In this document: in pieces, positions 42,540 through 57,429 of the stretch
How the letters are laid out: every line of letters begins with the position of its first letter
How positions within the stretch are numbered: position 1 is the first letter of the stretch
NCBI GenBank assembly: GCA_009835395.1
Contig: VXXM01000039.1
Span: 62,001 to 126,000 of the forward strand
Direction: 5' to 3'
Origin: Acidimicrobiia bacterium
GTDB taxonomy: Bacteria; Actinomycetota; Acidimicrobiia; Acidimicrobiales; CATQHL01
DNA length: 64,000 nt
The notes under the pieces: generated by a model
Database searches by the model: none
The model's input: the letters and a program-made list of their open reading frames with translations, nothing else
Told to the model about the DNA's origin: nothing
Program-made: the position numbers and the translations under genes

Positions 42540-43712
42540 TTACCGGTAGGGCGGCACGTAGAGGAGTCCGCCGTTGGTCCACAGGTCGTTGACCGAGCCG
42601 TTAAGCGGCAGGCCGAGCGGCTCGAGGTGGCGTCGGTAGATCTCCTCGTAGTTGCCGACCTGGGCCACGACCTGCACGGCGAAGTCAGAGGGCAGACCCA
42701 GGCCCGGGTCGAATCCCTCCTCGCCCAGGAACCTGGCCAGCGCCGGGTTCGTACCGGTCGCCGAGGCGATGTTGCCCGAGTCGAGGCCGAACTCCCAGGC
42801 CTGGATGGTGGCCATGACGGCCCACTGCACGACCTGTGCCCACTCGGTGTCCCCGTCGAGTACGACGGGGCCCAACGGCTCCTTGGAGATCGTCTCGGGC
42901 AGGATGAACTGCTCCTCGCCGCCCTCGCGCCCGATCTCGAACTTGAACACCGCCAGCGCCGACTTGTCCGACGTCATCGCCTCGCACTGCCCGGCGGTGT
43001 AACCGACGCGGGCCTCGGTGGCCTCGCCGAACGTGACCGGGTTGAAGGGGATGCCCCGCGAGCGCATCACGTCGGTGAGGTTCAACTCGGTGGTGGTGCC
43101 CTGCGCCACGCAGATGTTGGCGTCCGCCAGATCCTCGAGTCCGCGAATCCCGCTCGAGGCGGGGACCATCACGCCTTGGCCGTCGTACAGCGTGGTGTAG
43201 ACGAAGTTGGAGGCCTCCTTGCCGTCGCGGCTGGCGGTGAAGGTGACGTTGCGCACCAGCACGTCGATCTCGCCGGACTGCAACGCCGTGAACCGGTCGG
43301 CGGTCTGCACGTTCACGAAGTCCACGGCGCTGGCGTCGCCCAGCACGGCGGCGGCGATGACCCGGCAGAAGTCCGCGTCGAAGCCCTCGTGCTCGCCGTC
43401 GGGCGTCAGGAAGCTGAACCCCGGCAGGGCGTCGCGCACGCCGCAACGCACCGAGCCACGCGCCCGCACCTCGGCCAGACGTCCGCCCGCCTGCGACAGG
43501 GCCACCGTCTCCTCGGCCGCGGCGGTCGTCTCGGGTGGCACAGCCGGCGCCTCGGTAGCCGGAGGTGGCTCCGGCGCGGAGGGCTCAGCCGGCGCTTCGG
43601 TTGCCGGCGGTGACGACGGAGCGGTCATCTCACCGTCGTCTCCTCCGCAGGCCGCGGCAAGCAGAGTCACGGCGACAACCGCCGCCAAGGGCGCGAGATT
43701 TCGAGTGATCAT
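42540..43712 (-). CDS. Amino-acid ABC transporter substrate-binding lipoprotein (AapJ-like)
   Basis: A 390-residue lipoprotein with lipobox LAAAC (Cys22), a Pro/Ala/Glu-rich linker to about residue 65 and a type II binding domain. Motifs such as RCGVRDALPGFSFLTPDG and GFDADFCRVIAAAVLGD follow general L-amino-acid binding proteins AapJ/BztA. No permease or ATPase gene is adjacent, so it is an orphan binding protein here. The ATG at 43712 has a GGGAGG site. It is divergent from the Rieske oxygenase gene with an 85-base gap. Confidence 0.9.
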   Translation of the reverse strand: MITRNLAPLAAVVAVTLLAAACGGDDGEMTAPSSPPATEAPAEPSAPEPPPATEAPAVPPETTAAAEETVALSQAGGRLAEVRARGSVRCGVRDALPGFSFLTPDGEHEGFDADFCRVIAAAVLGDASAVDFVNVQTADRFTALQSGEIDVLVRNVTFTASRDGKEASNFVYTTLYDGQGVMVPASSGIRGLEDLADANICVAQGTTTELNLTDVMRSRGIPFNPVTFGEATEARVGYTAGQCEAMTSDKSALAVFKFEIGREGGEEQFILPETISKEPLGPVVLDGDTEWAQVVQWAVMATIQAWEFGLDSGNIASATGTNPALARFLGEEGFDPGLGLPSDFAVQVVAQVGNYEEIYRRHLEPLGLPLNGSVNDLWTNGGLLYVPPYR

Positions 43713-43797
43713 GCCAACCTCCCGCTCGACAGTCTCGCCGGAGATGTGCCGCATTCGCGCTGTCGACGGGCGGGGCGGAGCCGCTAGAACATTGGGG

Positions 43798-45132
43798 ATG
43801 GCTTCGTCGACCGCGGTGCCTACGTGGGCCGACGGCGGGTTCTGGGAGGGAATCCGCCGGGACGTCGCTTCGGCGTTCGGCATGCCGCCCGCGGCCTATG
43901 CGGACGGGGACTTCTTCGCAGCCGAGCAGCGGCGGCTGTTCGGGCGGGCCTGGGTGGGTGTGGCGCTGGCAGCGGAGTTGGCTGCGCCGGGCCGCCTGCT
44001 GGTGCGCTCAGTCGGCGGCCGCTCGGTGGTGCTGACGCGGTCGGGCGACAGGATTCGGGGTTTCCTGAATTCGTGCCGTCACCGGGGAACCGAACTGGCC
44101 GAGGCCGACTGCGACATCGGGAGCACGATCCGCTGCCCGTATCACCGCTGGGGCTACGGCACCGATGGCCGCCTCGTCTCGGCGCCACTGTTCGACAGCG
44201 TCCCCCGGGAGGACTTCGACCGCGCCGATTGGGGGCTGGTGCCGGTGCGAGTCGAGACGTGGGGCCCCGTCGTGTTCGCCTGCCTCGACGAGCGCACGCC
44301 TCCGCTCGGCGAGTGGCTCGGCGACCTGGCGGACCGCATGTCGGGCTACGGCCTCGAGGAGTGGCGGCCGATTGCGCTCACGGCGTCGCCGCATGATGGC
44401 GACGCCTCGGCTGCGGCCACTTCCACGTCCACGTGCACTTTCGACGTGGCGGCCAACTGGAAGCTCGTGGCGGAGAACTTCGCCGAGTACTACCACCTGG
44501 GTTGGGTCCACCCGCAACTGGCGAAGGTGTCGCGCGTCAAGGATCACTACCGCTACCAGGGCCCCGGCATGTACTGCGGCCAGACCACGACGCCGGTCTC
44601 GGGGGATCAGCGCGACGACTGGTTGACGCTGCCGCCGGCCTCGGGGTTGGACCACTCCGACGCCACCAGCGGCCGGTTCGTGACCCTGTTCCCCAACGTG
44701 CTGCTGTCTGTGCTGCCCAACCACGTCTTCGTCGTGTTGCTGGAGGCGGTGACCGCCGGCCGCACCATCGAGCACTGCGCCTTCCTGTTCCCGCCGGGCC
44801 CCGCGACCGACCCTGTGCCGCCGGCAGCCGTGGTGCGCGCCTTCGAGGTCACGCGCCGGTTCTGGATCGAGGTGAACGACGAGGACATCGACATCTGCGA
44901 GCGGGCGCAGCGGGGCCTCAGCCGGGGCGGTGTCCCGCCGGGTCCGCTGGCGCCGCGCTTCGAGGAGCCCGTCAACCGGTTCCACAAGATGGTGGCGGAC
45001 CTGATGACCCTGGAGTCGATGACCGATCTGTCGGTGCCACCGGGTGACCGGCCCGGGACCGCGGACCGCTACGGCACCGCCCTGAATCCTGCGCCGCCGC
45101 ACGTCGAGGCGTCCGCTCCCGAATCCGGCTGA
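43798..45132 (+). CDS. Rieske non-haem iron oxygenase alpha subunit
   Basis: A 444-residue oxygenase. The Rieske cluster ligands are Cys93 and His95 (CRHRG) and Cys113 and His116 (CPYHRWGY). The catalytic domain carries NWKLVAENFAEYYHLGWVH, containing the bridging acidic and iron-ligand histidine positions. The sequence resembles the quaternary-ammonium branch (choline, glycine betaine or carnitine monooxygenases), and the next gene is a dimethylglycine-dehydrogenase-like flavoprotein, so an N-demethylation or C-N cleavage step is likely. No reductase subunit is adjacent. Confidence 0.85.
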   Translation: MASSTAVPTWADGGFWEGIRRDVASAFGMPPAAYADGDFFAAEQRRLFGRAWVGVALAAELAAPGRLLVRSVGGRSVVLTRSGDRIRGFLNSCRHRGTELAEADCDIGSTIRCPYHRWGYGTDGRLVSAPLFDSVPREDFDRADWGLVPVRVETWGPVVFACLDERTPPLGEWLGDLADRMSGYGLEEWRPIALTASPHDGDASAAATSTSTCTFDVAANWKLVAENFAEYYHLGWVHPQLAKVSRVKDHYRYQGPGMYCGQTTTPVSGDQRDDWLTLPPASGLDHSDATSGRFVTLFPNVLLSVLPNHVFVVLLEAVTAGRTIEHCAFLFPPGPATDPVPPAAVVRAFEVTRRFWIEVNDEDIDICERAQRGLSRGGVPPGPLAPRFEEPVNRFHKMVADLMTLESMTDLSVPPGDRPGTADRYGTALNPAPPHVEASAPESG

Positions 45133-45143
45133 GCGGGTCGGAC

Positions 45144-47780
45144 GTGGCAGACCAGGCGCAGGCTGTCGTCATCGGCGGCGGCGTCGTCGGTGCCAGCGTG
45201 CTCTACCACTTGACGCGGGCCGGCTGGACCGATGTCGTGCTCCTCGAGCGCTCGGAGTTGACGGCGGGCTCCACGTGGCACAGCGCCGGCGGCATGCACG
45301 CCCTCAACGCCGATCCGACGGTGGCGAAGCTGCAGCACTACACGATCGAGTTGTACCGGGAGATCGAGGCGGCCTCCGGGCAGGACTGCAGCATCCACGT
45401 CACCGGCGGCGTGAGCCTCGCCGACACGCCCGAGCGTCTGAACTGGCTGAAGACGGTTCACGCCCGCGGGCGCTACCTCGGCATCGAGACGGAGATGATC
45501 TCCGCGGCCGAGGCCGCCCGTCGCCTTCCCATCGTGGATCCGACGCACTTCGTCGGCGCCATGGCCGACCGGGATCACGGCCACGTCGACCCGGCCGGCG
45601 TCACCCACGCCTACGTCAAGGCGGCCGTCGCCGCCGGAGCGCAGGTCCGCCGCCACACGTGGGCGCGGTCGATCGTGCGCTCGCCGTCGGGCAAATGGCG
45701 GATCGGTCTCCACGACACCTCCGACGGCAACCTCGGTGGGGACGGCTCGGAGTCGGCGGATGCGGGCTTCATCGAGACCCCGCACGTGGTGAACGCGGGC
45801 GGACTGTGGGCGCGCGAGGTCGGGCGCATGGTGGGACTCGAACTGCCGGTGCTGGCGATGGAGCACATCTACGTGCTCACCGAGCCGATCCCCGAGGTGA
45901 TCGCCCACAACCGGCGCACCGGCGAGGAGCTGATCCACTGCATCGACTTCGGCGGCGAGATCTACCTCCGCCAGGAAGGCCAAGGCCTGCTGCTGGGCAC
46001 CTACGAGCAGTCACCCGCGGTCTGGCAGCCTCGCCAAACTCCGTGGGACTTCGATCGGCGGCTGCTGCCACCCGATCTGGAGCGCATCGCCCCGTCGCTG
46101 CGAACCGCCTTCGCGCACTTCCCGGTGCTGGCCGACGCCGGGATCGCCCAGGTGGTCAACGGCCCGTTCACGTTCGCCGCCGACGGGAACCCGCTGGTCG
46201 GACCCGTGCGCGGGCTGCTGGGCTACTGGTCGGCATGCGCCGTGATGGCGGGCCTCTCTCAGGGCGGCGGTGTCGGCCTTGCACTGGCGAACTGGATGAC
46301 GAGAGGCGACCCCGGCTTCGACGTGTGGGCCATGGATATCGCCCGCTTCGGCGACTGGGCGACACGTCCCTACGTCGCCCGCAAGGTGATCGAGAACTAC
46401 CGCCGCCGCTTCAGCATCCGCTTCCCGAACGAGTACCTGCCCGAGGGGCGACCGCTGGCGACCACGCCGATCTATGACACTCTGCGCGCTCGCGGCGCCG
46501 TCTTCGGGGACTCCTTCGGCGTCGAAGTGCCGCTGTGGTTCGCGCCCCGGCCCGGGACCGCCGAGGAGATCACGTTCGGGCGCTCGAACGCCTGGCCCCA
46601 CGTGCGTGAGGAGGTCCAGGCCGTGCGTCACGGCGTCGGCCTCATGGAGTCCTCCGGCTTCGCCAAGTTCCTCGTCGAAGGACCCGGAGCGCGGGCCTGG
46701 CTCAACCGCCTGATGGCGGCTCGCCTGCCCGCGCCCGGCCGGATCGCGCTGGCGCCGATGTGCGGCACCGGCGGCAAACTCGCCGGCGACCTCACCGTGG
46801 CCTGCCTCCCACCGGCCGCCGGGGAGCGAGACGGCCCCGCGGAGACCGTCACCGCTGGCGCCACGGCCAACACCGCTGGCGGGGAGCGCTTCGTGATCTT
46901 CGGCTCCGGGGTCGCCGAGCGGTACTACGAGCGCTGGTTCGACGCTGCGCTGGCCGACTGGACGCGATCCGGCCTCTCCCGCAGCGAGCCGAGCCCCTCG
47001 GTCGGCTACCGGACCCTGGGTGTGGAGTTGTGTGGGCTGGCGATCGCCGGGCCGGCGTCGCGGGCACTGCTGGCCCAGGTCACCGATGCCGACGTCTCCG
47101 AGGCGGCGATGTGCTTCGGCAGCATGACCGAGATCGACATCGGCATGGCGCGGGTCTGGTGCGGTCGGCTCAGCTACACCGGCGCCCTCGGCTACGAACT
47201 GTGGGTGCCGGCCCGCTACCAGCGCCACGTGTTCGGCCAATTCGTCGACCACGGCGCCGCACACGGCCTGCGACTGTTCGGCAGCCACGCCCTGAATTCG
47301 CTGCGCCTCGAGAAGAGCTTCGGGAGTTGGGCGCGCGAGTACCGCCCCGACTACGACCCGTTCGAGGCCGGGCTCGGCCGCTTCGTGCGGCTCACGAGAC
47401 CCGACGACGACGGCGCGGATTTCGTCGGCCGCGCCGCGCTGGTCGCCCGCTACGGCCCGTCCGGGGTGCGGGCCGGCAGCGACGGCCCAGCCGAGGGCAT
47501 GCTCGCGCTGCGCACTTGGACCGTCGAGGTGCCGCCGGGTCCCGTGGGCGTCGACGCCACCGGCGACGAGCCCATCTGGTGCAACGGCAAGCCGGTCGGC
47601 TGGGTAACCTCCGGCGGCTACGCCCACCACAGCGACAAGTCGGTGGCGATGGGCTACGTACCCGCGGCCCTCGCAACCAAGGAGACCGACTTCGAGATCG
47701 AACTCCTCGGCACCAGGCGTCGGGCGCACCTGGTGGATCGATGCCTGTGGGACCCCGACGGCATCGCGATGCGCGCCTGA
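45144..47780 (+). CDS. Dimethylglycine/sarcosine dehydrogenase-like flavoprotein with GcvT domain, copy 1
   Basis: An 878-residue protein. The N-terminal FAD domain begins with GGGVVGASVLYHL and has GSTWHSAGG, in which His46 aligns with the histidine that covalently binds FAD in dimethylglycine dehydrogenase. The C-terminal half is an aminomethyltransferase (GcvT) domain that would pass a one-carbon unit to tetrahydrofolate. A variable insertion rich in Ala/Gly interrupts the GcvT part near residues 550-575. It starts with GTG 11 bases after the Rieske oxygenase, so the two form a two-gene operon for methylated amine breakdown. The exact substrate is unknown. Confidence 0.88.
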   Translation: MADQAQAVVIGGGVVGASVLYHLTRAGWTDVVLLERSELTAGSTWHSAGGMHALNADPTVAKLQHYTIELYREIEAASGQDCSIHVTGGVSLADTPERLNWLKTVHARGRYLGIETEMISAAEAARRLPIVDPTHFVGAMADRDHGHVDPAGVTHAYVKAAVAAGAQVRRHTWARSIVRSPSGKWRIGLHDTSDGNLGGDGSESADAGFIETPHVVNAGGLWAREVGRMVGLELPVLAMEHIYVLTEPIPEVIAHNRRTGEELIHCIDFGGEIYLRQEGQGLLLGTYEQSPAVWQPRQTPWDFDRRLLPPDLERIAPSLRTAFAHFPVLADAGIAQVVNGPFTFAADGNPLVGPVRGLLGYWSACAVMAGLSQGGGVGLALANWMTRGDPGFDVWAMDIARFGDWATRPYVARKVIENYRRRFSIRFPNEYLPEGRPLATTPIYDTLRARGAVFGDSFGVEVPLWFAPRPGTAEEITFGRSNAWPHVREEVQAVRHGVGLMESSGFAKFLVEGPGARAWLNRLMAARLPAPGRIALAPMCGTGGKLAGDLTVACLPPAAGERDGPAETVTAGATANTAGGERFVIFGSGVAERYYERWFDAALADWTRSGLSRSEPSPSVGYRTLGVELCGLAIAGPASRALLAQVTDADVSEAAMCFGSMTEIDIGMARVWCGRLSYTGALGYELWVPARYQRHVFGQFVDHGAAHGLRLFGSHALNSLRLEKSFGSWAREYRPDYDPFEAGLGRFVRLTRPDDDGADFVGRAALVARYGPSGVRAGSDGPAEGMLALRTWTVEVPPGPVGVDATGDEPIWCNGKPVGWVTSGGYAHHSDKSVAMGYVPAALATKETDFEIELLGTRRRAHLVDRCLWDPDGIAMRA

Positions 47781-47918
47781 GAAGCGGGTCACGCGAAAAG
47801 GTAGGGTGCGGCCGTCGCGGCCGCTGCGCGGTGCGTGCTCACGGGGTGCCGGCCCACTCGACCGGTGGGAGCACGTCGCGACGGAGTTGACCTGGTAATC
47901 GCCGAGAGGAGAATTGCG

Positions 47919-49142
47919 ATGGGGGATCTCAAGTCAGCCGCCGATGCGGTATTGGATGGTGTTGTTTCGGGGTCGCCGCGTGTTCCCGGCGTCGCTGCGG
48001 TCGCCACCGATCGCGACGGCGTCATCTACGCCGGCGCACAGGGCGAGCGCGTCCTCGGGGGAGACCCCTTCACGACCGACACGGTGGTTGCGATCTTCTC
48101 GACCACCAAGGCCATCGGCGGCACCGCCTGCCTCCAGCTGGTCGAGCAGGGCGACCTGGACCTGGACGCCCCGGCGAAGGAGTATGCACCCAGGATCGGC
48201 GGGCTGGACGTGCTCGAGGGATTCGACGACGACGGGACGCCCCGGTTGCGCCCGCCCCGCGGCGATGTCACGACACGCCAGTTGCTGTGCCATACCGCCG
48301 GGCTCACCTACGACTTCTTCAACGAGACGTACACGAGGCTGGCCAACGAGCAGGGCCAGCCGTGGGTGGTGGATGCCTCCTACGCCTCCATCGAGACGCC
48401 CCTGCTCTTCGACCCGGGCGAGCAGTGGGAGTACGGCTCCAACATCGACTGGGCCGGCCTGGTGGTGGAGGGCATCACCGGCAAGCGGCTGGGCGAGGTC
48501 TTCGAGGAGAGGATCCTGGGGCCCCTCGGGATGGACTCGACCGCCTTCTCGATGACTCCGTCGATGCGTGAGCGCCTGGCCACGATCCACGCACGCGAGG
48601 ACGCCGACGGGTCGCTGATCCCGCTGGCGGGCGTGGAACTGCCCCCCGACCCCGAGATCCACATGGCCGGCCACGGCCTCTACGGCACGGCGGAGGACTA
48701 CGCCAAGTTCATCCGCATGTGGCTCAACGACGGCGCCGGCCCCAACGGCGAGCAGATCCTGCGGCCCGAGACCGTCGAGATGGCGGTGCAGAATCAGCTG
48801 CCCGATGGCATGTTCATCAAGATGCTGCCCGGCGTCGGCGCCACCGAGGTGGCCAAGACGGTGCTTCCCATCTCGAACCCGCGCCTGTCCAACGACGCCG
48901 AGTTCTTCCCGGGCATGCCGAAGACGTGGGCGCTCACCTTCATGATCAACGAGGAGCCTGCCCCCACGGGCCGGCCCGCGGGTGCGCTGGCCTGGGCGGG
49001 TCTGGCCAACCTGTACTACTGGATCGACCGTGCCAACGGGGTGGGCGGCTTCTGGGCGACCCAGATCTTCCCCTTCGTCGACCCCACGTCGGTGGGCGGC
49101 TTCCTGGACTTCGAGAAGGCGGTCTACGACAACGCCGTCTAG
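47919..49142 (+). CDS. Serine hydrolase, class C beta-lactamase/esterase fold
   Basis: A 407-residue cytoplasmic-type protein without a signal peptide. The active-site S-T-T-K (around residue 63), the Tyr-Gly-Ser-Asn second motif and an HMAGHGL third-motif region mark the serine beta-lactamase-like/EstB family. These are usually esterases or peptidases rather than antibiotic-resistance enzymes. The ATG at 47919 follows a GAGAGGAG site. It lies 138 bases after the flavoprotein gene and is probably a separate unit. Confidence 0.88.
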
Positions 49143-49193
49143 TCCGGCGTCACCGCTCTGGAAGGTCCGGCCGACCCGGGCGGCAGCCGCGGG

Positions 49194-49799
49194 TCAGACC
49201 CGCGATCGAGTGAATCGTCGCCTTCGGGTGGAACGGAGCACGTGCCGGGCGTAGAGCCGGATCGTTCGGAACAGGCTGGTGAGGTCGAGGGTGCTGAACA
49301 CGGTGTCCGCCAGTCCGAACGGCAACATGGTGGGGATGGGCCCGCGCGCATACTCCAGGATGTAGGCGCCGTCGACCATGCGGAAGCCCTTCGCTTCGCC
49401 TCTCCGCAGATGCACCGAATCGCCCTGGCGGTACTCCGTCCTCCGGAGATCTCCCTCGCCGTAGTACCACATCTCCCCATCGAGGACGACGCTGTGGTCG
49501 TCGACGAAGCGATACCGGCCGGTGTGCCCGCCGCTGCCGATGGGGCTGCCGAAGAAGATCACGTACTCGCGGAGCGAGGCGTACAGCATGGCGACCTGTC
49601 CCATGGTGCCGCCGGCGTTGGAGTAGAACCACGTGGGCTCGGTCTCGATCAGGCCGGGATACCGTTCGGCGAGTTCTCGAGTGATCGCGGGGATCATCTC
49701 CTCCAGCGGCAGATCCAGATGGGAATGGGCCACTTCCCGGAGGACTTCGGGCTCGAAGACGTACCTATTCCCCGGATTGCGACGCTGCAGCGAGATCAC
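49194..49799 (-). CDS. ERG2/sigma-1 receptor-family protein (sterol C8 isomerase-like)
   Basis: A 201-residue protein with strong resemblance over nearly its whole length to fungal C-8 sterol isomerase ERG2 and the animal sigma-1 receptor. Shared blocks include NAGGTMGQ, EYVIFFGSPIG, GHTGRY, and the C-terminal LADTVFSTLDL and LYARHVL segments. The two acidic residues important for ligand binding in sigma-1 (Asp126 and Glu172) appear conserved as Asp100/101 and Glu149 (LEYARG). The N-terminal membrane helix of the eukaryotic proteins is absent. The GTG start overlaps the START-domain gene stop (GTGA), so translation is coupled. No other sterol gene is in the window. Confidence 0.88.
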   Translation of the reverse strand: MISLQRRNPGNRYVFEPEVLREVAHSHLDLPLEEMIPAITRELAERYPGLIETEPTWFYSNAGGTMGQVAMLYASLREYVIFFGSPIGSGGHTGRYRFVDDHSVVLDGEMWYYGEGDLRRTEYRQGDSVHLRRGEAKGFRMVDGAYILEYARGPIPTMLPFGLADTVFSTLDLTSLFRTIRLYARHVLRSTRRRRFTRSRV

Positions 49800-50281
49800 G
49801 GGTTGCGAGGATAGGGCCCGACGTCCTCGCCTGAGAATCCAGAACCACGAATAGAGAAGCGCTTGACCAGGTTGTCCAGGGTGGTGGCAATGGAGTCTTC
49901 GATGAGCTGATCCCTGACCAACCACCTACTCACGGGCTGGAATCGCATGGAGGTGTAGTCGGCCGACTCGGTTACCCGAGTGCCGTCCTCGCCGGGCTCC
50001 AACTCGTAGCGCCAGAGGTTCTTGCCCAGATGACACCAGGCGATAAGCCGGTTTTCCTCGTATTCGACCACCCTGCTGGTGATCCTGTAGGGCACGCCGA
50101 ACACCTTCATGGCCATCGTGAACTCCGACCCCAGTTGCATGTGTCCCCGACCGGCGACGAGCCTCTGAACGGTCCCGGAGCCGTCCATCTCGACATGGCG
50201 GGCCGGGTCGGCCAGCAGGGCGAAGATCTCCTCGGGGGCAGCGGGGACCACTCGGCTGGCAGTGAAGAGCTGTCTGCTCAC
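49796..50281 (-). CDS. SRPBCC/START-like lipid-binding domain protein
   Basis: A 161-residue single-domain protein of the SRPBCC superfamily (polyketide cyclase/START-like): it begins with the FTASRVVPAAPEEIFALLADPARH pattern and ends in a long amphipathic helix. The family binds hydrophobic ligands in a deep cavity. It is translationally coupled to the ERG2/sigma-1-like gene, so a shared sterol-like or isoprenoid ligand is a reasonable inference. No signal peptide. Confidence 0.82.
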   Translation of the reverse strand: MSRQLFTASRVVPAAPEEIFALLADPARHVEMDGSGTVQRLVAGRGHMQLGSEFTMAMKVFGVPYRITSRVVEYEENRLIAWCHLGKNLWRYELEPGEDGTRVTESADYTSMRFQPVSRWLVRDQLIEDSIATTLDNLVKRFSIRGSGFSGEDVGPYPRNP

Positions 50282-50348
50282 GGCAGCACGGCTCTCAGCA
50301 TCGTGTATGGATCAGGGTGGCAAGCCTCGAAGCCCGGATGAGGCGAGC

Positions 50349-51281
50349 CTAGATCTTCGGCCGGGTTCGTTGGCGCTGCCAGGGACGACCGACCCGATCG
50401 CGGGCCAAATCGGCCCGGGCGTGGGTGATCACCGCACCCACGATCAGCAGCCCGCCGACCACGGTGAGAACCGGCGGCGCCTCGCTCACCACGATCCACG
50501 CCGCCAGAATCGAGCAGGGTGTCTCGGTCGTGGCCAGGAGCGCGGCTTCCGCCGCCCGGAGGCGCCGGACCCCCTCGGTCCACAGGATCAGCGACACGGC
50601 GAACACCAGCCCGAACGCCACGGTCAGAGGCATCTCGGAGGCGGCCATCCCGAGCGGGTCGGCCACCGCGAGCGCCACCGGGAACAGCGCAACTCCCGAT
50701 CCCGCCTGTGCCAACAGTGCATCGGTGCCCGGGAAGCGGCGGATCAGCACGATCAGCGAGGCCAGCGTGAGCGACAGGGCCACGGCCAGCAGATCCCCCT
50801 CCAGGTTGCCGGCCCCGAGGCTCCCGGCCACGGTCAGGACCACACCGCCGAACGACACCGCCGCGGCGATGACCGTCGACCGCCGCAGACCCTCACGCAG
50901 GATCAGCCACCCGAGCCCCGCGGCCATGAACGGGATGGTCGCCATGATCACCGACACGTTGGCCACGGCCGTCTTCTGGATCGAGGTGACCAGCAACACC
51001 ATGGCCGTGGCGTTGAGAGTGAGCAGCACCAGCGTCTTGGCGGCTGAGGCCGGGTCGAGCCGGACCCGGAAATGCTCGGCGTCGCGTCGCCGGCGCCACC
51101 AGACATAGGCCACGATGACCGGGGTCGCGGTCAGGCCGCGCCAGCTTGCGATCTCCCAGGCGCCGCCCTCGATGCTGCGGGTGAACACGCCCGACATGCC
51201 GAAGCCCAGCCCGGAGGCGAGCATGACGGTCGCGCCCACCCGGCGCGACCGCGATCGGGCCGGGTGCTGGTCCGCCGTCAA
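50349..51281 (-). CDS. EamA-family (DMT superfamily) transporter
   Basis: A protein of up to 310 residues with ten hydrophobic helices arranged as two EamA repeats (about residues 15-150 and 160-292). EamA proteins export or import small metabolites such as amino acids. The start is uncertain: TTG at 51281 gives a basic N-terminal tail, and an ATG at 51224 would begin nearer the first helix. It lies between sodC and the START-domain gene on the same strand. Confidence 0.85.
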   Translation of the reverse strand: MTADQHPARSRSRRVGATVMLASGLGFGMSGVFTRSIEGGAWEIASWRGLTATPVIVAYVWWRRRRDAEHFRVRLDPASAAKTLVLLTLNATAMVLLVTSIQKTAVANVSVIMATIPFMAAGLGWLILREGLRRSTVIAAAVSFGGVVLTVAGSLGAGNLEGDLLAVALSLTLASLIVLIRRFPGTDALLAQAGSGVALFPVALAVADPLGMAASEMPLTVAFGLVFAVSLILWTEGVRRLRAAEAALLATTETPCSILAAWIVVSEAPPVLTVVGGLLIVGAVITHARADLARDRVGRPWQRQRTRPKI

Positions 51282-51288
51282 CTCAGCT

Positions 51289-51328
51289 CAGAGGAAGCGC
51301 AGCAATGCATAGGCCCCGGCTTCCTCTG
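51289..51328 (-). terminator. Inverted repeat downstream of sodC
   Basis: A perfect ten-base inverted repeat (CAGAGGAAGC at 51289-51298 and its complement at 51319-51328) with a 20-base loop lies about 58 bases beyond the sodC stop and just before the EamA start. It may end the mttB-to-sodC transcript. There is no clear U-run. Confidence 0.4.
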
Positions 51329-51385
51329 CGTCCGACCTCCCCAGCCCATTCTGCGCCGCTGATCTGAGCTGCGGTCAGATACTGC

Positions 51386-52027
51386 TCAGCCGGCCGGGAG
51401 GTCCTCGCCGGGTCCCGCCTCGGCGGGACCGTCGTCTGCGGTCGCGCCGCCACCGGCGGGCTCGGGCTGGCCGGGGCGAATCACGCCGCACGCCACACGG
51501 TCACCCGCACCGGGGGACTCGCCGTAGCTGTCGGGCTCGGCGTGAACGATGATCGCCGAGCCGTCGACGTCGAAGATCGAGTTCTCGGCGCCGGGCGTCA
51601 ACGTCACCGCCGAGGTAAAGGTATCGGCACGGGCGGTGCCGTCGGCAGCGGCGTAGATGTTGGGCAGATCGCCGGCGTGCCAGCCGCCCTCCACCATGAA
51701 CCCGTGACCGATTCCCTCTGGATTGAAATGGTCACCTGCAGCACTGAAGTCGGGCTCGCAAGCACCGACGGCGTGGATGTGGAATCCGTGACCGCCCGGA
51801 GACAGGCCGGTCAAGTCGGCCTGCACCAGCACTCCGTTGGGGCCCTCGATGAGCGTGACGGTCCCCATGGCCTGGCCATCGGGACCCATCAGCTGGGCCG
51901 TGGCGGTGAGCGGCGCGCCTGCGTCGGTCTCGTCGGCATCGTCCTGTTGTGACGTGACTCCGGAGGCCGCGAGGATCAACGTCGAAGCCACGATCAGGGG
52001 GAGTGCAAGGAGGTGTTGGCGTGTCAT
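51386..52027 (-). CDS. sodC: Secreted Cu/Zn superoxide dismutase
   Basis: A 213-residue exported enzyme. A signal peptide (LLALPLIVASTLILAASG) precedes the dismutase domain. Copper and zinc ligands are visible in GGHGFHIHAVGAC, HFNP, HAGDLPNI and IIVHAEPDSYG, and the two cysteines for the conserved disulfide are present (GAC and VACGVI). A disordered Gly/Pro/Glu-rich tail follows. It protects the cell surface from superoxide. Its ATG overlaps the threonine-synthase-like stop by four bases, an unusual operon partner. Confidence 0.92.
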   Translation of the reverse strand: MTRQHLLALPLIVASTLILAASGVTSQQDDADETDAGAPLTATAQLMGPDGQAMGTVTLIEGPNGVLVQADLTGLSPGGHGFHIHAVGACEPDFSAAGDHFNPEGIGHGFMVEGGWHAGDLPNIYAAADGTARADTFTSAVTLTPGAENSIFDVDGSAIIVHAEPDSYGESPGAGDRVACGVIRPGQPEPAGGGATADDGPAEAGPGEDLPAG

Positions 52028-53343
52028 GGAGCGGACGCTACTCCGGCGGGCGGTGTCCCCGGCGCCGTCGGCGCCCAACCTGTCTCACGGGCACCAACAC
52101 GCACGCCCGAGTCCGCTGATTCGCGCTGGGACGACAACGTGCCCCAGTCCACCGACTGAGGCAGACGAGGCAGCGGTTCGGACCCGATGACCTCGACGTA
52201 CTTCTGCGCTGCGCCGGTGTTGAATATCACGACACGCTCGTCGGGGTGGATCGCCTTCTCGGCGACGAGAAGCTCGAGTACTCCGAGGCAGGCACCGGCC
52301 TCGGGGGCGAACGCGATGCCTTCCAGGGCGGCGCCCCGCCGAGCCCATGAGAGGAGTGATCGCTCCGGGCAGGCTCGAGCCTGCCCGCCGGACTCGTTGA
52401 CGGCGTCGATGATCATGAAGTCGCCGACCGCGGCCGGCACCCGCAGCCCGCTCGCCGCGGTGGCCGCGTCGGGGAAGGGCTCGGCGAACCGCTCGCCCGC
52501 CTCCCAGGCCGTGCTGATCGGCGCGCATCCGTCGGATTGGCACGAGATCATGCGGGGCCGGCGCGCGTCGGCGAGCCAGCCGATCTCGGCCAGCTCGGCG
52601 AAGGCCTTCCACATGCCGATGAGGCCCGTGCCGCCGCCGGTCGGGTAGAGGATCACGTCGGGGAGCGACCAGTCGAACTGCTCGGCGAGCTCGAGGCCCA
52701 TGGTCTTCTTGCCCTCGATCCGGTATGGCTCCTTGAGGGTCGACACGTCGAACCAGCCCATCTCCGCGGTTCCCTCGCGCACGACGGCGGCGCAGTCGGT
52801 GATGAGGCCGTCAACCAACCAGGCCCGGGCCCCGTAGTAGGCGGCCTCGAGTTGGTTGACGATCGGCGTGTCGGCGGGCATGAAGACGAACGCCTCCATG
52901 CCGACCCGGGCTGCGTAGGCGGCCATTGCGCCGCCGGCGTTGCCACACGTCGGGATGGCCACCCGCTCGACGCCGAGTTCGTTGGCCCGGCTGATCGCCA
53001 TGGCGAGGCCCCGGCTCTTGAACGAGCCGGTGGGGAGCTGGGATTCGTCTTTCACCCACAGGTCGTTCAGTCCGAGCGCAGCACCGAGTTGCTCGCAGCG
53101 GAGCAGCGGCGTCATGCCCTCGCCGAGCGACGCGATCTTGGATTCGTCCTCGACGGGCAGGAGTTCCCTGTAGCGCCACATGGTCGGCGCTCGACCGGCG
53201 ACCGCCCCCTTGGTCATGGCCGCGTCGACGGCTTGGAGGTCGTAGCGGACCCAAAGCGGCCGACCCTCGTGGAGGGTCTGGAGTTCGTTGTGGGGCAGGT
53301 GGGTGCCATCGATGGCAGCCTCGAGGTGGGTGACGTAGCTCAC
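52024..53343 (-). CDS. Threonine synthase-like PLP enzyme
   Basis: A 439-residue fold-type II PLP enzyme. The PLP lysine lies in LPTGSFKSRG, and the phosphate-binding loop is TCGNAGGA and the downstream PTGGGTGL. It is of the ThrC type, with an N-terminal extension of about 70 residues before the core. The GTG at 53343 is preferred over one at 53358 because GAGGAGAGA precedes it. Its location after a dimethylglycine-dehydrogenase-like gene makes a biosynthetic threonine synthase doubtful; an ammonia-lyase-like or phosphono/hydroxy amino acid role is possible. Confidence 0.8.
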   Translation of the reverse strand: MSYVTHLEAAIDGTHLPHNELQTLHEGRPLWVRYDLQAVDAAMTKGAVAGRAPTMWRYRELLPVEDESKIASLGEGMTPLLRCEQLGAALGLNDLWVKDESQLPTGSFKSRGLAMAISRANELGVERVAIPTCGNAGGAMAAYAARVGMEAFVFMPADTPIVNQLEAAYYGARAWLVDGLITDCAAVVREGTAEMGWFDVSTLKEPYRIEGKKTMGLELAEQFDWSLPDVILYPTGGGTGLIGMWKAFAELAEIGWLADARRPRMISCQSDGCAPISTAWEAGERFAEPFPDAATAASGLRVPAAVGDFMIIDAVNESGGQARACPERSLLSWARRGAALEGIAFAPEAGACLGVLELLVAEKAIHPDERVVIFNTGAAQKYVEVIGSEPLPRLPQSVDWGTLSSQRESADSGVRVGARETGWAPTAPGTPPAGVASAP

Positions 53344-53354
53344 CGGCTCTCTCC

Positions 53355-55775
53355 TCACGCCCGCGGGCGTTTGTGGGCGGGGTCGAACATGGGCTCGGTC
53401 CGCACGACCGCGGGGGAGCGTACGCCGATGATGTCGACGGCCAGCTCGGTGCTCGCTTCGGCGCGCTCGGGGGCGACGTAGCCCATGGCGATGTTGGTGC
53501 GCATCGTGTGCCCGTAGCCGCCGCTGGTGACCACGCCGACCAGGTCGTCGCCGGCCCAGATGGGATCACCGGTGTGGGCGGCCGCCTCGTCGTTGGTGAC
53601 CTCGAGGGCGACGAACCGGCGCCGGTCGCCGGCCTCGCGCTGGGCGACGATGGCATCGCGACCCCGGAAGTCCTTGTCGAGGTCGACGAAACGGTCCAGC
53701 CCGGCCTCGAGCACCGTGTACTCGGTGTGGAGATCCTGCTTCCAAGCCCGGTAATTCTTCTCGAGGCGCATCGACTCGGTGGCCAGCAGGCCGAAGTCCA
53801 CCATGCCGAGCGGCTCACCCGCCGCCGACAGCGCCTCGTACACGGCAACCGAGTGCTCGATCGGGAAATGGAGCTCCCAGCCGAGCTCGCCGGTGAAGCT
53901 CAACCGGAGCGCCTGCACCGCGAGGCCGCCGATGGTGATCTCGCGGGTCGACAGCCAGGGGAACGACTTGTTGTCGAGCGGGTGATCGGTGACCGCGCCG
54001 AGCACGTCGCGTGACCGGGGACCGGCCACCATGAGGGCGTTGTGGGTGTCGCTGAGGTTGGTGATCGTCACGGCGGCCGGAGGTTCGGCCTCGTTCAGGA
54101 GGTCGAGGTCGTGCCACTCGGCCGGTGCCGCGCTGAACAACCGGAAATGGTCCTCGGCGAGCCGCAGCATCGTGAACTCCGACCGGAACCGTCCCTTCTC
54201 GTCGCTCACGTAGGCAAGGGCGCTGCGGCCGATGGCCGGCAGGCGACCGGCCGTCAGATGGTTGAACCACTCGTCAGCCCCCGCTCCGGTGACCTCGAAA
54301 CGGGTGAAGCCCGAGATCTCCACGACGCCGACGTTGTCGCGCACGGTACGGGCCTCGGCGCCGACCTGGTCGTGGAAGGTCGAGAAGCGGAACTCCGGCA
54401 CATGCTCGAAGTCGTTGTGCGCCGGGTGGAAATAGAGCACCCGCTCCCAGCCGTTGAGCGCGCCGAACTCGGCTCCCTTGGCCGCCAGCACGTCGTACAG
54501 CGGTGTGCACTTCGCCTTGCGGCCCGCGGGCCGGTGCTCGTCGGGACGGTGGAAGACGAACTCGCGCTGGTACTCCTCGACCGCCTTCGCCGAGGCGTAG
54601 GCCTCATCCGCGTACCGGGTGAAGCGGCGGGGATCCAGGCACCAGGAGTCCCACTCGGACTCGCCGTCGACGATGATCTCGGCCAGGACCTTGCCGAGGC
54701 CTCCGCCTTCGCCGATGCCGGCTCGGATGCCGAGCATGGCGTAGCCGTTGCGTATGCCCGGCAGTTTGCCGACGAGCGGGACGCCGTCGCCGGAGTAGGT
54801 GATCGGGCCGTTGATCACCGAGGAGATCCCCGCGGTCTGCAGCACGGGGAGGCGTTCCATGACCCGCTCCATGTTGTCGGCGATGCGGTCGAGGTCGGGC
54901 GGCTCGAGCTTGCCGGCGAAGGCGTCGGGGATGTGTTGGCGGCCCCAGGTCTTGCAGCCCTGCTCGTAGATGCCGACCAGCAGGCCGTCGTGTTCCTGGC
55001 GGCTGTAGAAGTCGTCGCCCGGGTCGCGGATGAGCGGCACCCGCCTCTCGAGGGCCTTGAGTTCGGGCAACTCCTCAGTGAGGAGGTACTGGTGCTCCAT
55101 CGACGACACCGCGGACTCCAACCCGTAGAACCTGCCGACCTGGTGGACCCGGTACCCGGCGGCGTTCACGAAGCTCTCAGCTTCGATGTCGCCCTTATTG
55201 GTGCGCGCGAGCCAGCCGCCGGCGGTGGATTCGAGGCCGATCACCTCGGTGTGGCGGAACACCTGGCCGCCGTTGCGGCGACCGGCCCTGCAGAGGGCGT
55301 TGACCAGGCCCGTCGGGTCGATGTCGCCGTCCACGGGGTCCCACAGGCCACAGGTCAGGCCGGCGACGTCGAGCAGCGGATGCGCTTCGGCCATCTCCGA
55401 GGGGCCGAGGACCTCGAAGTCGACGCCCATCCCCTTGGCCATGCCGACGAAGTGGCGGTAGCCGTCGAGATCGGACTGGTCGTAGCCGAGCCGGATCCCG
55501 CCGTCGTCGCGGTGGTACGTGATCGGCGCCTCGGGGTCGGCGGCCAGTCGCGTGTACAGCTCAACGGAGTACTTCTTCAGGCCGACCATCGTCTGGACCG
55601 CGCCGAACTGGGTGACCTGACCGGCGGCGTGCCAGGTGGAGCCCGACGCCAGCTCGTCGCGTTCGAGGAGCACCACGTCGGTCCAGCCGTGCTCGGTGAG
55701 GTGGTAGAAGGTGCTGGCGCCGCCGACGCCACCGCCGATCACGACAACTCGTGCCCGGCTCGGAAGGTTGCTCAC
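53355..55775 (-). CDS. Dimethylglycine/sarcosine dehydrogenase-like flavoprotein with GcvT domain, copy 2
   Basis: An 806-residue protein with the same architecture as the one at 45144: FAD domain (GGGVGGASTFYHL, with the covalent-FAD histidine candidate His49 in GSTWHAAG), FAO_M linker and C-terminal GcvT folate-binding domains. Compared with copy 1 the GcvT half is uninterrupted. It is 73 bases downstream of an MttB-family methyltransferase, suggesting sequential demethylation of a methylated amine. The GTG start is at 55775. Confidence 0.9.
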   Translation of the reverse strand: MSNLPSRARVVVIGGGVGGASTFYHLTEHGWTDVVLLERDELASGSTWHAAGQVTQFGAVQTMVGLKKYSVELYTRLAADPEAPITYHRDDGGIRLGYDQSDLDGYRHFVGMAKGMGVDFEVLGPSEMAEAHPLLDVAGLTCGLWDPVDGDIDPTGLVNALCRAGRRNGGQVFRHTEVIGLESTAGGWLARTNKGDIEAESFVNAAGYRVHQVGRFYGLESAVSSMEHQYLLTEELPELKALERRVPLIRDPGDDFYSRQEHDGLLVGIYEQGCKTWGRQHIPDAFAGKLEPPDLDRIADNMERVMERLPVLQTAGISSVINGPITYSGDGVPLVGKLPGIRNGYAMLGIRAGIGEGGGLGKVLAEIIVDGESEWDSWCLDPRRFTRYADEAYASAKAVEEYQREFVFHRPDEHRPAGRKAKCTPLYDVLAAKGAEFGALNGWERVLYFHPAHNDFEHVPEFRFSTFHDQVGAEARTVRDNVGVVEISGFTRFEVTGAGADEWFNHLTAGRLPAIGRSALAYVSDEKGRFRSEFTMLRLAEDHFRLFSAAPAEWHDLDLLNEAEPPAAVTITNLSDTHNALMVAGPRSRDVLGAVTDHPLDNKSFPWLSTREITIGGLAVQALRLSFTGELGWELHFPIEHSVAVYEALSAAGEPLGMVDFGLLATESMRLEKNYRAWKQDLHTEYTVLEAGLDRFVDLDKDFRGRDAIVAQREAGDRRRFVALEVTNDEAAAHTGDPIWAGDDLVGVVTSGGYGHTMRTNIAMGYVAPERAEASTELAVDIIGVRSPAVVRTEPMFDPAHKRPRA

Positions 55776-55848
55776 GCTTGGCCCCGCAGTTGTGCAATGG
55801 GAGCCTCGGCCCCGGGTTCGATGTCGAGCGCCAGGAGAACCGAGGCAC

Positions 55849-57429
55849 TCATGCGGACTCTGTCCGCTGTGGGCGGGCGGGCGTCATGTCGCGCGGGTCG
55901 AGCACAATCGGGAATCGGCCCCGGATCTCGGCGTCCTGCTCGGCGGTGAGGTACATCGGGTGGTGCTGCATCAGCTCATCCAGCCGTCGCTGGGCCACGG
56001 TTCGCACATCGGGAGCGCCCTTGGACTCCCACTCTTCGGGGGTGGAGCGGTCGCCGATGTTGGGGTAGAGGTACTCGGTCTGCATCATCGACAGCGTCTG
56101 CGCGGTGCCGAGGAAGTGTCCCTCACCGAAGCAGACCGACTCGATCACGTCGAGTGCCAAGGTTTTCTCGGTGACCTCGACTCCCCGGACGGCCCGGAGG
56201 GCGTAGCCGAGGAGTTCGTCGTCGATCACGAACTGCTCGAAGGAGGCGCCCAGCAGGCTGGCCAGCATGCCCGACGACTCGTAGACCAGGTTGGCGCCGG
56301 CGGTGCCGGCCAGCACGGTGGTGATGCCCTTCTCGTAGCCGGTCTGGGCATCCGGGAGCTTGGAGTCGGCCATGCCCGCGGCGACGCCGCACGGGAGCCC
56401 GAATCGCTTCGCCACCTGAGCGGCCGCCGCGTTGAGCACGGCCGTCTCGGCCGATCCGCCGACCATCGACCCGGTGCGGAGGTCGGACACGAACGGCCAG
56501 TTGGAGAAGATCATCGGGTGACCCGCTCGGATGAGGTTGACGAGCGCCAGCGACGCCAGCGTCTCGGCGGTGGTGATCACAAGCGTTCCCGCCAGTGGTG
56601 CTGGTGAGGTGGCACCGGCCTGCCCGGCGGTGATGGCGTTGATCGGCATGCCGGCCTCGACCGCCGAGATGAGGGTCTCGCAGGCGTCGGCGCCGTAGCG
56701 CAAGGGCGGGACGATCGGGCTGGAGTGCAGCTTGCAGAACGGGCGGCGGGCGAACTGGCCACGTCCGCCGGCGGCGATATCGAACATCTCGACGACGGGC
56801 TTCACGTTCTCGGGAACGGTGATGGCTGTGCCGACGTGCTTCGTGGTGGCGGCCAGCAGGCAGTAGGCGGTGTTGATGTCGAGGTCGTAGGGGTCGGGGA
56901 GGTCGGTTGCGATGACGCACCGGGTGAACCAGTGCACGTTGGCGAGTTGGTCGGCCAGGCGGGTGAAGTCGTAGAGATCGACCAGGGTCGATGGCCGGTA
57001 CGTGTCGCTGCGGTGGTCGAACACCGAGACCGCGGCCCCGCCCGTGCCGAAGTGCACGCGATCGCCGCTGATGTCGAGGTCGTGGCGCGGGTCGCGGCCA
57101 TGGAGTGTGAAGTCCTTCGCCGCGCCGTCGATCAGGGCCTCCATGAGAGGCCGGGGAAGGCAGAGGCGACCGGCGTCGTTCAGCTCGGCGCCGGCGTCGA
57201 GGGCCGCCTCGAGCAGGCGCGGGACGGGGTCGGCCACGCCCACTCGGGCGAGCACGTCGAACGCGCCATCGCAGACCCGCGTCACCTCATCGTCGGTCAG
57301 TGGTCGGTAGGCACCTCCCCGGAGACCGGGTCGTATGGGTGCCTTGACGCGCTCGGGTCCGTCGGCGCGTTCGCGGCGCTTGGCCTCGCGGGCCTGACCA
57401 CGGCGATGGGGACGATCCGGCGTACTCAC
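55849..57429 (-). CDS. MttB-family (trimethylamine methyltransferase) protein, non-pyrrolysine type
   Basis: A 526-residue TIM-barrel methyltransferase of the MttB superfamily. Family features include the HFGTGGAAVSVFD segment near residue 115 and the central AITAGQAGATSPAPLAGT block. There is no in-frame amber codon, so it is not a pyrrolysine enzyme; relatives of this kind include glycine betaine methyltransferases (MtgB). No corrinoid protein gene is next to it. It starts with GTG and has a basic, Arg-rich N-terminus of about 35 residues. It likely begins the run of methylated amine genes down to sodC. Confidence 0.88.
   Translation of the reverse strand: MSTPDRPHRRGQAREAKRRERADGPERVKAPIRPGLRGGAYRPLTDDEVTRVCDGAFDVLARVGVADPVPRLLEAALDAGAELNDAGRLCLPRPLMEALIDGAAKDFTLHGRDPRHDLDISGDRVHFGTGGAAVSVFDHRSDTYRPSTLVDLYDFTRLADQLANVHWFTRCVIATDLPDPYDLDINTAYCLLAATTKHVGTAITVPENVKPVVEMFDIAAGGRGQFARRPFCKLHSSPIVPPLRYGADACETLISAVEAGMPINAITAGQAGATSPAPLAGTLVITTAETLASLALVNLIRAGHPMIFSNWPFVSDLRTGSMVGGSAETAVLNAAAAQVAKRFGLPCGVAAGMADSKLPDAQTGYEKGITTVLAGTAGANLVYESSGMLASLLGASFEQFVIDDELLGYALRAVRGVEVTEKTLALDVIESVCFGEGHFLGTAQTLSMMQTEYLYPNIGDRSTPEEWESKGAPDVRTVAQRRLDELMQHHPMYLTAEQDAEIRGRFPIVLDPRDMTPARPQRTESA

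What the first reader, a model, noticed from the sequence alone, without database searches (positions are those of the whole stretch)
49194..50281. Bacterial homologue of the sigma-1 receptor and ERG2 sterol isomerase, coupled to a START-like protein
The 201-residue protein matches eukaryotic sigma-1/ERG2 along almost its full length, keeps both acidic ligand-site residues, and lacks the N-terminal membrane helix. This family is regarded as essentially eukaryotic, and no sterol pathway gene is next to it. Four-base overlap with a lipid-binding-fold gene suggests that the two work on the same hydrophobic ligand.
Basis: partly seen in the sequence, partly recalled or inferred. Interest (0 to 1): 0.88.

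Follow-up and report, generated by a model that had tools for sequence, protein, structure and literature searches.

The report
Bacterial ERG2-type sterol isomerase gene
A bacterium related to sponge symbionts carries an intact gene for ERG2, an enzyme family that yeast uses to make its membrane sterols; such genes are already known from sponge bacteria, and the lipid-binding gene that overlaps it looks like an accidental neighbour rather than a partner.

Summary
In detail: window 49194-49799 (-) encodes a full-length ERG2/sigma-1 protein (Pfam E 3.8e-60; predicted fold matches sigma-1 at TM 0.84-0.89). It is neither contamination nor an isolated oddity. It sits in a well-supported bacterial clade spanning five phyla, largely from Ircinia sponge-symbiont MAGs. 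There ERG2 usually follows a sterol methyltransferase directly, often in a cluster with a squalene-epoxidase/oxidosqualene-cyclase fusion, CYP51, ERG24, SdmA and SdmB. The window's genome also has an epoxidase-cyclase fusion, a sterol methyltransferase and two ERG24-family reductases on other contigs, so "no sterol pathway gene" is true only locally. No convincing CYP51 was found, so the substrate is uncertain. START coupling is not supported: no relative outside the genus has it, three congeners carry START without ERG2 beside it, and the four-base overlap lies in an insertion junction that extends START by 18 codons. The sigma-1 glutamate is kept (E149), the aspartate is not (S103), as in yeast ERG2. 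ERG2 in sponge steroid clusters and the epoxidase-cyclase fusion are published (PMC9531527, PMC7074536). Verdict: new member of a known kind, most likely a sterol C8 isomerase. A second bacterial ERG2 clade without the sponge-type cyclase is the more open question.

The parts
49194..49799 (-). ERG2/sigma-1 family protein, 201 aa, probable sterol C8 isomerase; E149 = sigma-1 E172
49765..49852 (-). 88-bp junction stretch with no match to congener START or to the G423 ERG2 remnant; it supplies the 18-residue START tail, the GTGA overlap and the first ERG2 residues
   Evidence: the first 10 ERG2 residues have pLDDT below 50
49796..50281 (-). START-fold (Polyketide_cyc2) protein, 161 aa here against 144 aa in congeners; neighbour, not a conserved partner

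Best explanation
The gene encodes a bacterial sterol C8 isomerase of the ERG2 family: it moves the ring-B double bond of a sterol from delta8 to delta7 inside a sigma-1-like barrel, with E149 as the conserved acid. It belongs to a sterol gene set that circulates by horizontal transfer among sponge-symbiont bacteria. In this genome it is separated from that set and sits behind a START gene. It would act on sterols made by the genome's own epoxidase-cyclase fusion, methyltransferase and ERG24-family reductases, or on sterols shared with host or neighbours. Shown by computation: family, fold, clade, gene context in relatives, sterol genes elsewhere in the genome, junction scar, purifying selection. 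Inferred: catalysis, substrate, and that this genome lives in a sponge.
For: Family and fold. Clade of 16 rows, support 95/98, across Actinomycetota, Pseudomonadota, Acidobacteriota, Verrucomicrobiota and Rhodothermota. ERG2 directly downstream of a sterol methyltransferase in 11 of 15 close relatives; the epoxidase-cyclase fusion at 65-73% identity in 12 of those 15 genomes and in none of 11 distant ones. Cluster genes identified as SMT, SdmA, SdmB, CYP51 and ERG24 family. Own genome: 1124-aa SE + cyclase protein with DCTAE motif, methyltransferase with Sterol_MT_C, two ERG4_ERG24 proteins. ERG2-type motif around FVDD as in yeast ERG2 (yeast sequence from memory). Pairwise dN/dS 0.16-0.28.
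Against: None of the papers read reports an assay of a member of this clade. The own genome has no convincing CYP51 (best 32 bits), nor do six of seven congeners, and C14-demethylation normally precedes C8 isomerisation. The family's usual start codon is lost, so expression depends on the upstream GTG. Only 2 of 8 sampled genomes of the genus carry ERG2, and one other has a truncated remnant, so it is dispensable in the genus.
Confidence: 0.75

Rival explanations
1. It is a sigma-1-like, non-catalytic ligand-binding protein that senses or carries a hydrophobic amine or steroid.
For: Sigma-1 structures are the closest solved folds, and the glutamate is conserved.
Against: The sigma-1 aspartate is not kept and the local motif is of the yeast ERG2 type. 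Close relatives sit in biosynthetic sterol clusters. Fold alone cannot separate the two, since no ERG2 enzyme appeared among the solved hits.
Confidence: 0.1
2. START and ERG2 form a two-gene unit that handles one hydrophobic ligand.
For: Four-base overlap, so the two may be translated together today.
Against: No START homologue in 26 relative loci. START stands without ERG2 beside it in three congeners. The overlap lies in an 88-bp stretch unmatched on either side, and START is longer here by 18 residues.
Confidence: 0.06
3. It is a transferred gene on its way to decay, expressed poorly or not at all.
For: Lost native start codon, separation from the sterol cluster, patchy presence and a truncated remnant in the genus.
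Against: Frame intact over the whole domain, short end branch in the tree, dN/dS 0.16-0.28; these average over a history that may pre-date the insertion.
Confidence: 0.09

Closest known systems
Clusters of steroid genes in Ircinia sponge symbionts (PMC9531527)
   Same: Several published clusters include ERG2; jk18x bins behind many relatives found here come from that study
   Different: Here ERG2 stands alone beside a START gene, and other sterol genes lie on other contigs
msb locus of a Melophlus sponge symbiont (PMC7074536)
   Same: Bifunctional squalene epoxidase/cyclase MsbE with sterol reductase, C30-demethylase, oxidoreductase and Rieske genes
   Different: ERG2 is not mentioned in that paper's main text
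Yeast ERG2 sterol C8 isomerase
   Same: Full-length homology, 38% identity, similar motif in place of the sigma-1 aspartate (yeast sequence from memory)
   Different: No N-terminal membrane segment here
Sigma-1 receptor (5hk1, 7w2b)
   Same: Fold and conserved glutamate
   Different: No membrane helix; aspartate replaced by serine

Membership tests
ERG2/sigma-1 family (PF04622) | Profile match over the domain | tested here: met
   203 bits, profile positions 17-205 of 210
ERG2/sigma-1 family (PF04622) | Barrel plus C-terminal helices as in sigma-1 | tested here: met
   TMq 0.84-0.89, about 1.5 A, first 42 hits all sigma-1
Sigma-1 receptor | Both ligand-site acids, D126 and E172 | tested here: not met
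   E149 kept; D126 aligns with S103
Sigma-1 receptor | N-terminal membrane helix | tested here: not met
   No hydrophobic N-terminal stretch
Sterol C8 isomerase (ERG2) | Gene context with sterol biosynthesis | tested here: met
   Clustered in relatives; in the own genome on other contigs
Sterol C8 isomerase (ERG2) | A full upstream pathway in the same genome | tested here: inconclusive
   Epoxidase-cyclase, SMT and ERG24 family present; no convincing CYP51 or SdmA found in a 94%-complete MAG; SdmB not searched
Sterol C8 isomerase (ERG2) | Delta8-delta7 isomerase activity | not testable with these tools
   Needs an assay

The most novel reading that the evidence does not exclude
ERG2 proteins of a second bacterial clade (actinobacteria and spirochaetes), most of which keep both sigma-1 acids and whose genomes gave no sponge-type oxidosqualene cyclase, act on sterols taken from other organisms or on a non-sterol ligand, so the family has a non-biosynthetic role in bacteria.
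Probability: 0.2. Interest if true: 0.7.

Novelty: new member of a known kind. Interest (0 to 1): 0.4.

Why it matters
ERG2 is a target of antifungal compounds and a relative of a human receptor. Bacterial members clustered with sterol genes offer proteins without the N-terminal membrane helix for work on mechanism and structure, and they bear on whether sponge sterols used as biomarkers are partly bacterial. The gene itself is not a new kind of system.

Tried and rejected
Eukaryotic contamination: rejected by bacterial gene context and by a clade of bacteria across five phyla. START as a conserved partner: rejected. Carriage by mobile elements: no homologue in plasmid or phage records or viral contigs, and only weak short repeats around the junction. 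NCBIfam has no hit for the protein. The PNAS paper on bacterial steroid evolution is not held, so its account of bacterial ERG2 is unread. SdmB was not searched in the own genome. The places of yeast ERG2 and of L025 in the tree are unsure, since two long branches meet; the relation of bacterial to eukaryotic ERG2 is therefore left open.

Full report
What is there. The ORF at 49194-49799 (-) encodes 201 residues with a GTG start that overlaps the stop of the upstream gene by four bases. Pfam gives ERG2_Sigma1R at E 3.8e-60 over nearly the whole model, and the family occurs once in the genome. The solved relatives found by sequence are sigma-1 receptors. The AlphaFold2 model (pLDDT 85, pTM 0.83) has sigma-1 structures as its first 42 hits, at TM 0.84-0.89 and about 1.5 A. 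There is no N-terminal membrane helix. The sigma-1 glutamate corresponds to E149, kept in every row aligned; the aspartate aligns with S103, where yeast ERG2 (sequence from memory) has phenylalanine.

Relatives. A scan of one genome per bacterial and archaeal species found 26 relatives: 15 at 66-75% identity in MAGs labelled as several phyla, and 11 at 39-45% in actinobacteria and spirochaetes. The record titles name no host, but the jk18x bin names, and one bin by its exact name (jk18x7bins.13, L008), occur in the Ircinia sponge study. In a maximum-likelihood tree the window and the 15 close relatives form one clade, support 95/98, across five phyla. The window pairs with L002 (94/80), an Acidimicrobiia MAG; its contig has the same length and match coordinates as one in G427, a genome of the window's own genus. 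This pattern fits horizontal spread among bacteria and not contamination from a eukaryote. In the phylum 5 of 396 sampled genomes have the family.

Context in relatives. ERG2 lies directly after a sterol methyltransferase gene in 11 of the 15 close relatives, at distances of a few bases. Ten of the loci hold, within the stretch fetched, a fused squalene epoxidase/oxidosqualene cyclase and an ERG24-family gene. Most of these also have a P450 whose best solved matches are CYP51, and homologues of SdmA and SdmB. Twelve of the 15 genomes carry the fusion at 65-73% identity; the 11 distant genomes gave nothing comparable. In yeast, side-chain methylation by Erg6 is followed by Erg2 (established knowledge), so the gene order mirrors successive steps.

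The window's own genome. It holds a 1124-aa protein with SE and both SQHop_cyclase domains and a DCTAE motif, as in oxidosqualene cyclases; a separate squalene-hopene cyclase; two ERG4_ERG24 proteins; and on contig C25 a methyltransferase with the Sterol_MT_C domain beside a KshA-like Rieske oxygenase and near a GPP34-P450 fusion. All eight sampled genomes of the genus have the epoxidase-cyclase fusion. No convincing CYP51 was found: the best match to a cluster CYP51 is 32 bits, and of seven congeners only G427 has a clear one, with two others at 63-76 bits and 24-25% identity. The SdmA query found Rieske proteins up to 80 bits and 34% identity, not a clear orthologue. The pathway here is incomplete in the assembly or unusual, and the substrate of ERG2 is uncertain.

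The START gene. No homologue occurs in the 26 relative loci. In congeners G423 and G422 START is 144 aa and is followed by unrelated genes; in G425 a partial START is followed by the EamA gene; G428 keeps only a 36-bp match to the START end between the two genes that flank the pair in the window. In the window, homology to congener START ends at 49853-49856, and homology to a truncated ERG2 remnant in G423 begins at 49764. The 88 bases between them supply the 18-residue START tail, the GTGA overlap and the first ERG2 residues. Those ERG2 residues have pLDDT below 50, and the codon at the family's usual start is AAT here. The overlap is best read as a by-product of an insertion. The frame is intact and pairwise dN/dS with relatives is 0.16-0.28, so the protein has been constrained for most of its history; this does not date the insertion.

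Mechanism. Most likely a sterol C8 isomerase that moves the delta8 double bond to delta7, with E149 as an acid/base residue. This is inferred from family, motif and gene context, not measured.

What is known. The Ircinia paper reports steroid gene clusters with ERG2 in several of them (PMC9531527). The Melophlus paper reports a bifunctional squalene epoxidase/cyclase (PMC7074536). Bacterial sterol methyltransferases, some from such clusters, have been assayed (PMC10070321). A recent paper mentions a C-8 isomerase in Methylotuvimicrobium, without naming its family in the passages read (PMC13277303). The finding is therefore a new member of a known kind. More open is the second bacterial clade: actinobacterial and spirochaete proteins that mostly keep both sigma-1 acids, in genomes without the sponge-type cyclase.

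Noticed in passing
L017-L024, L026: A second bacterial ERG2 clade (actinobacteria, spirochaetes) keeps the sigma-1 aspartate and glutamate in the rows shown, lies beside a short-chain dehydrogenase gene in some loci, and its genomes gave no sponge-type cyclase.
   Followed up: partly
L055, L056, L057: Three genomes of one other genus of the phylum carry divergent ERG2 genes next to P450 genes. The tool does not name the genus; from neighbouring genes I guess Mycobacterium.
   Followed up: partly
L048:12685-14847: A P450 fused behind a GPP34 (Golgi phosphoprotein 3) domain, near the sterol methyltransferase on contig C25 of the window's genome.
   Followed up: no
L085:5461-5560: A truncated, frameshifted remnant of an ERG2 gene in congener G423.
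   Followed up: yes
window 43207-57429: Neighbours are a ring-hydroxylating oxygenase, two DAO-GCV_T proteins, a trimethylamine methyltransferase family protein, a beta-lactamase-family protein, EamA, Cu/Zn superoxide dismutase and a threonine-synthase-like protein; none points to sterols.
   Followed up: partly
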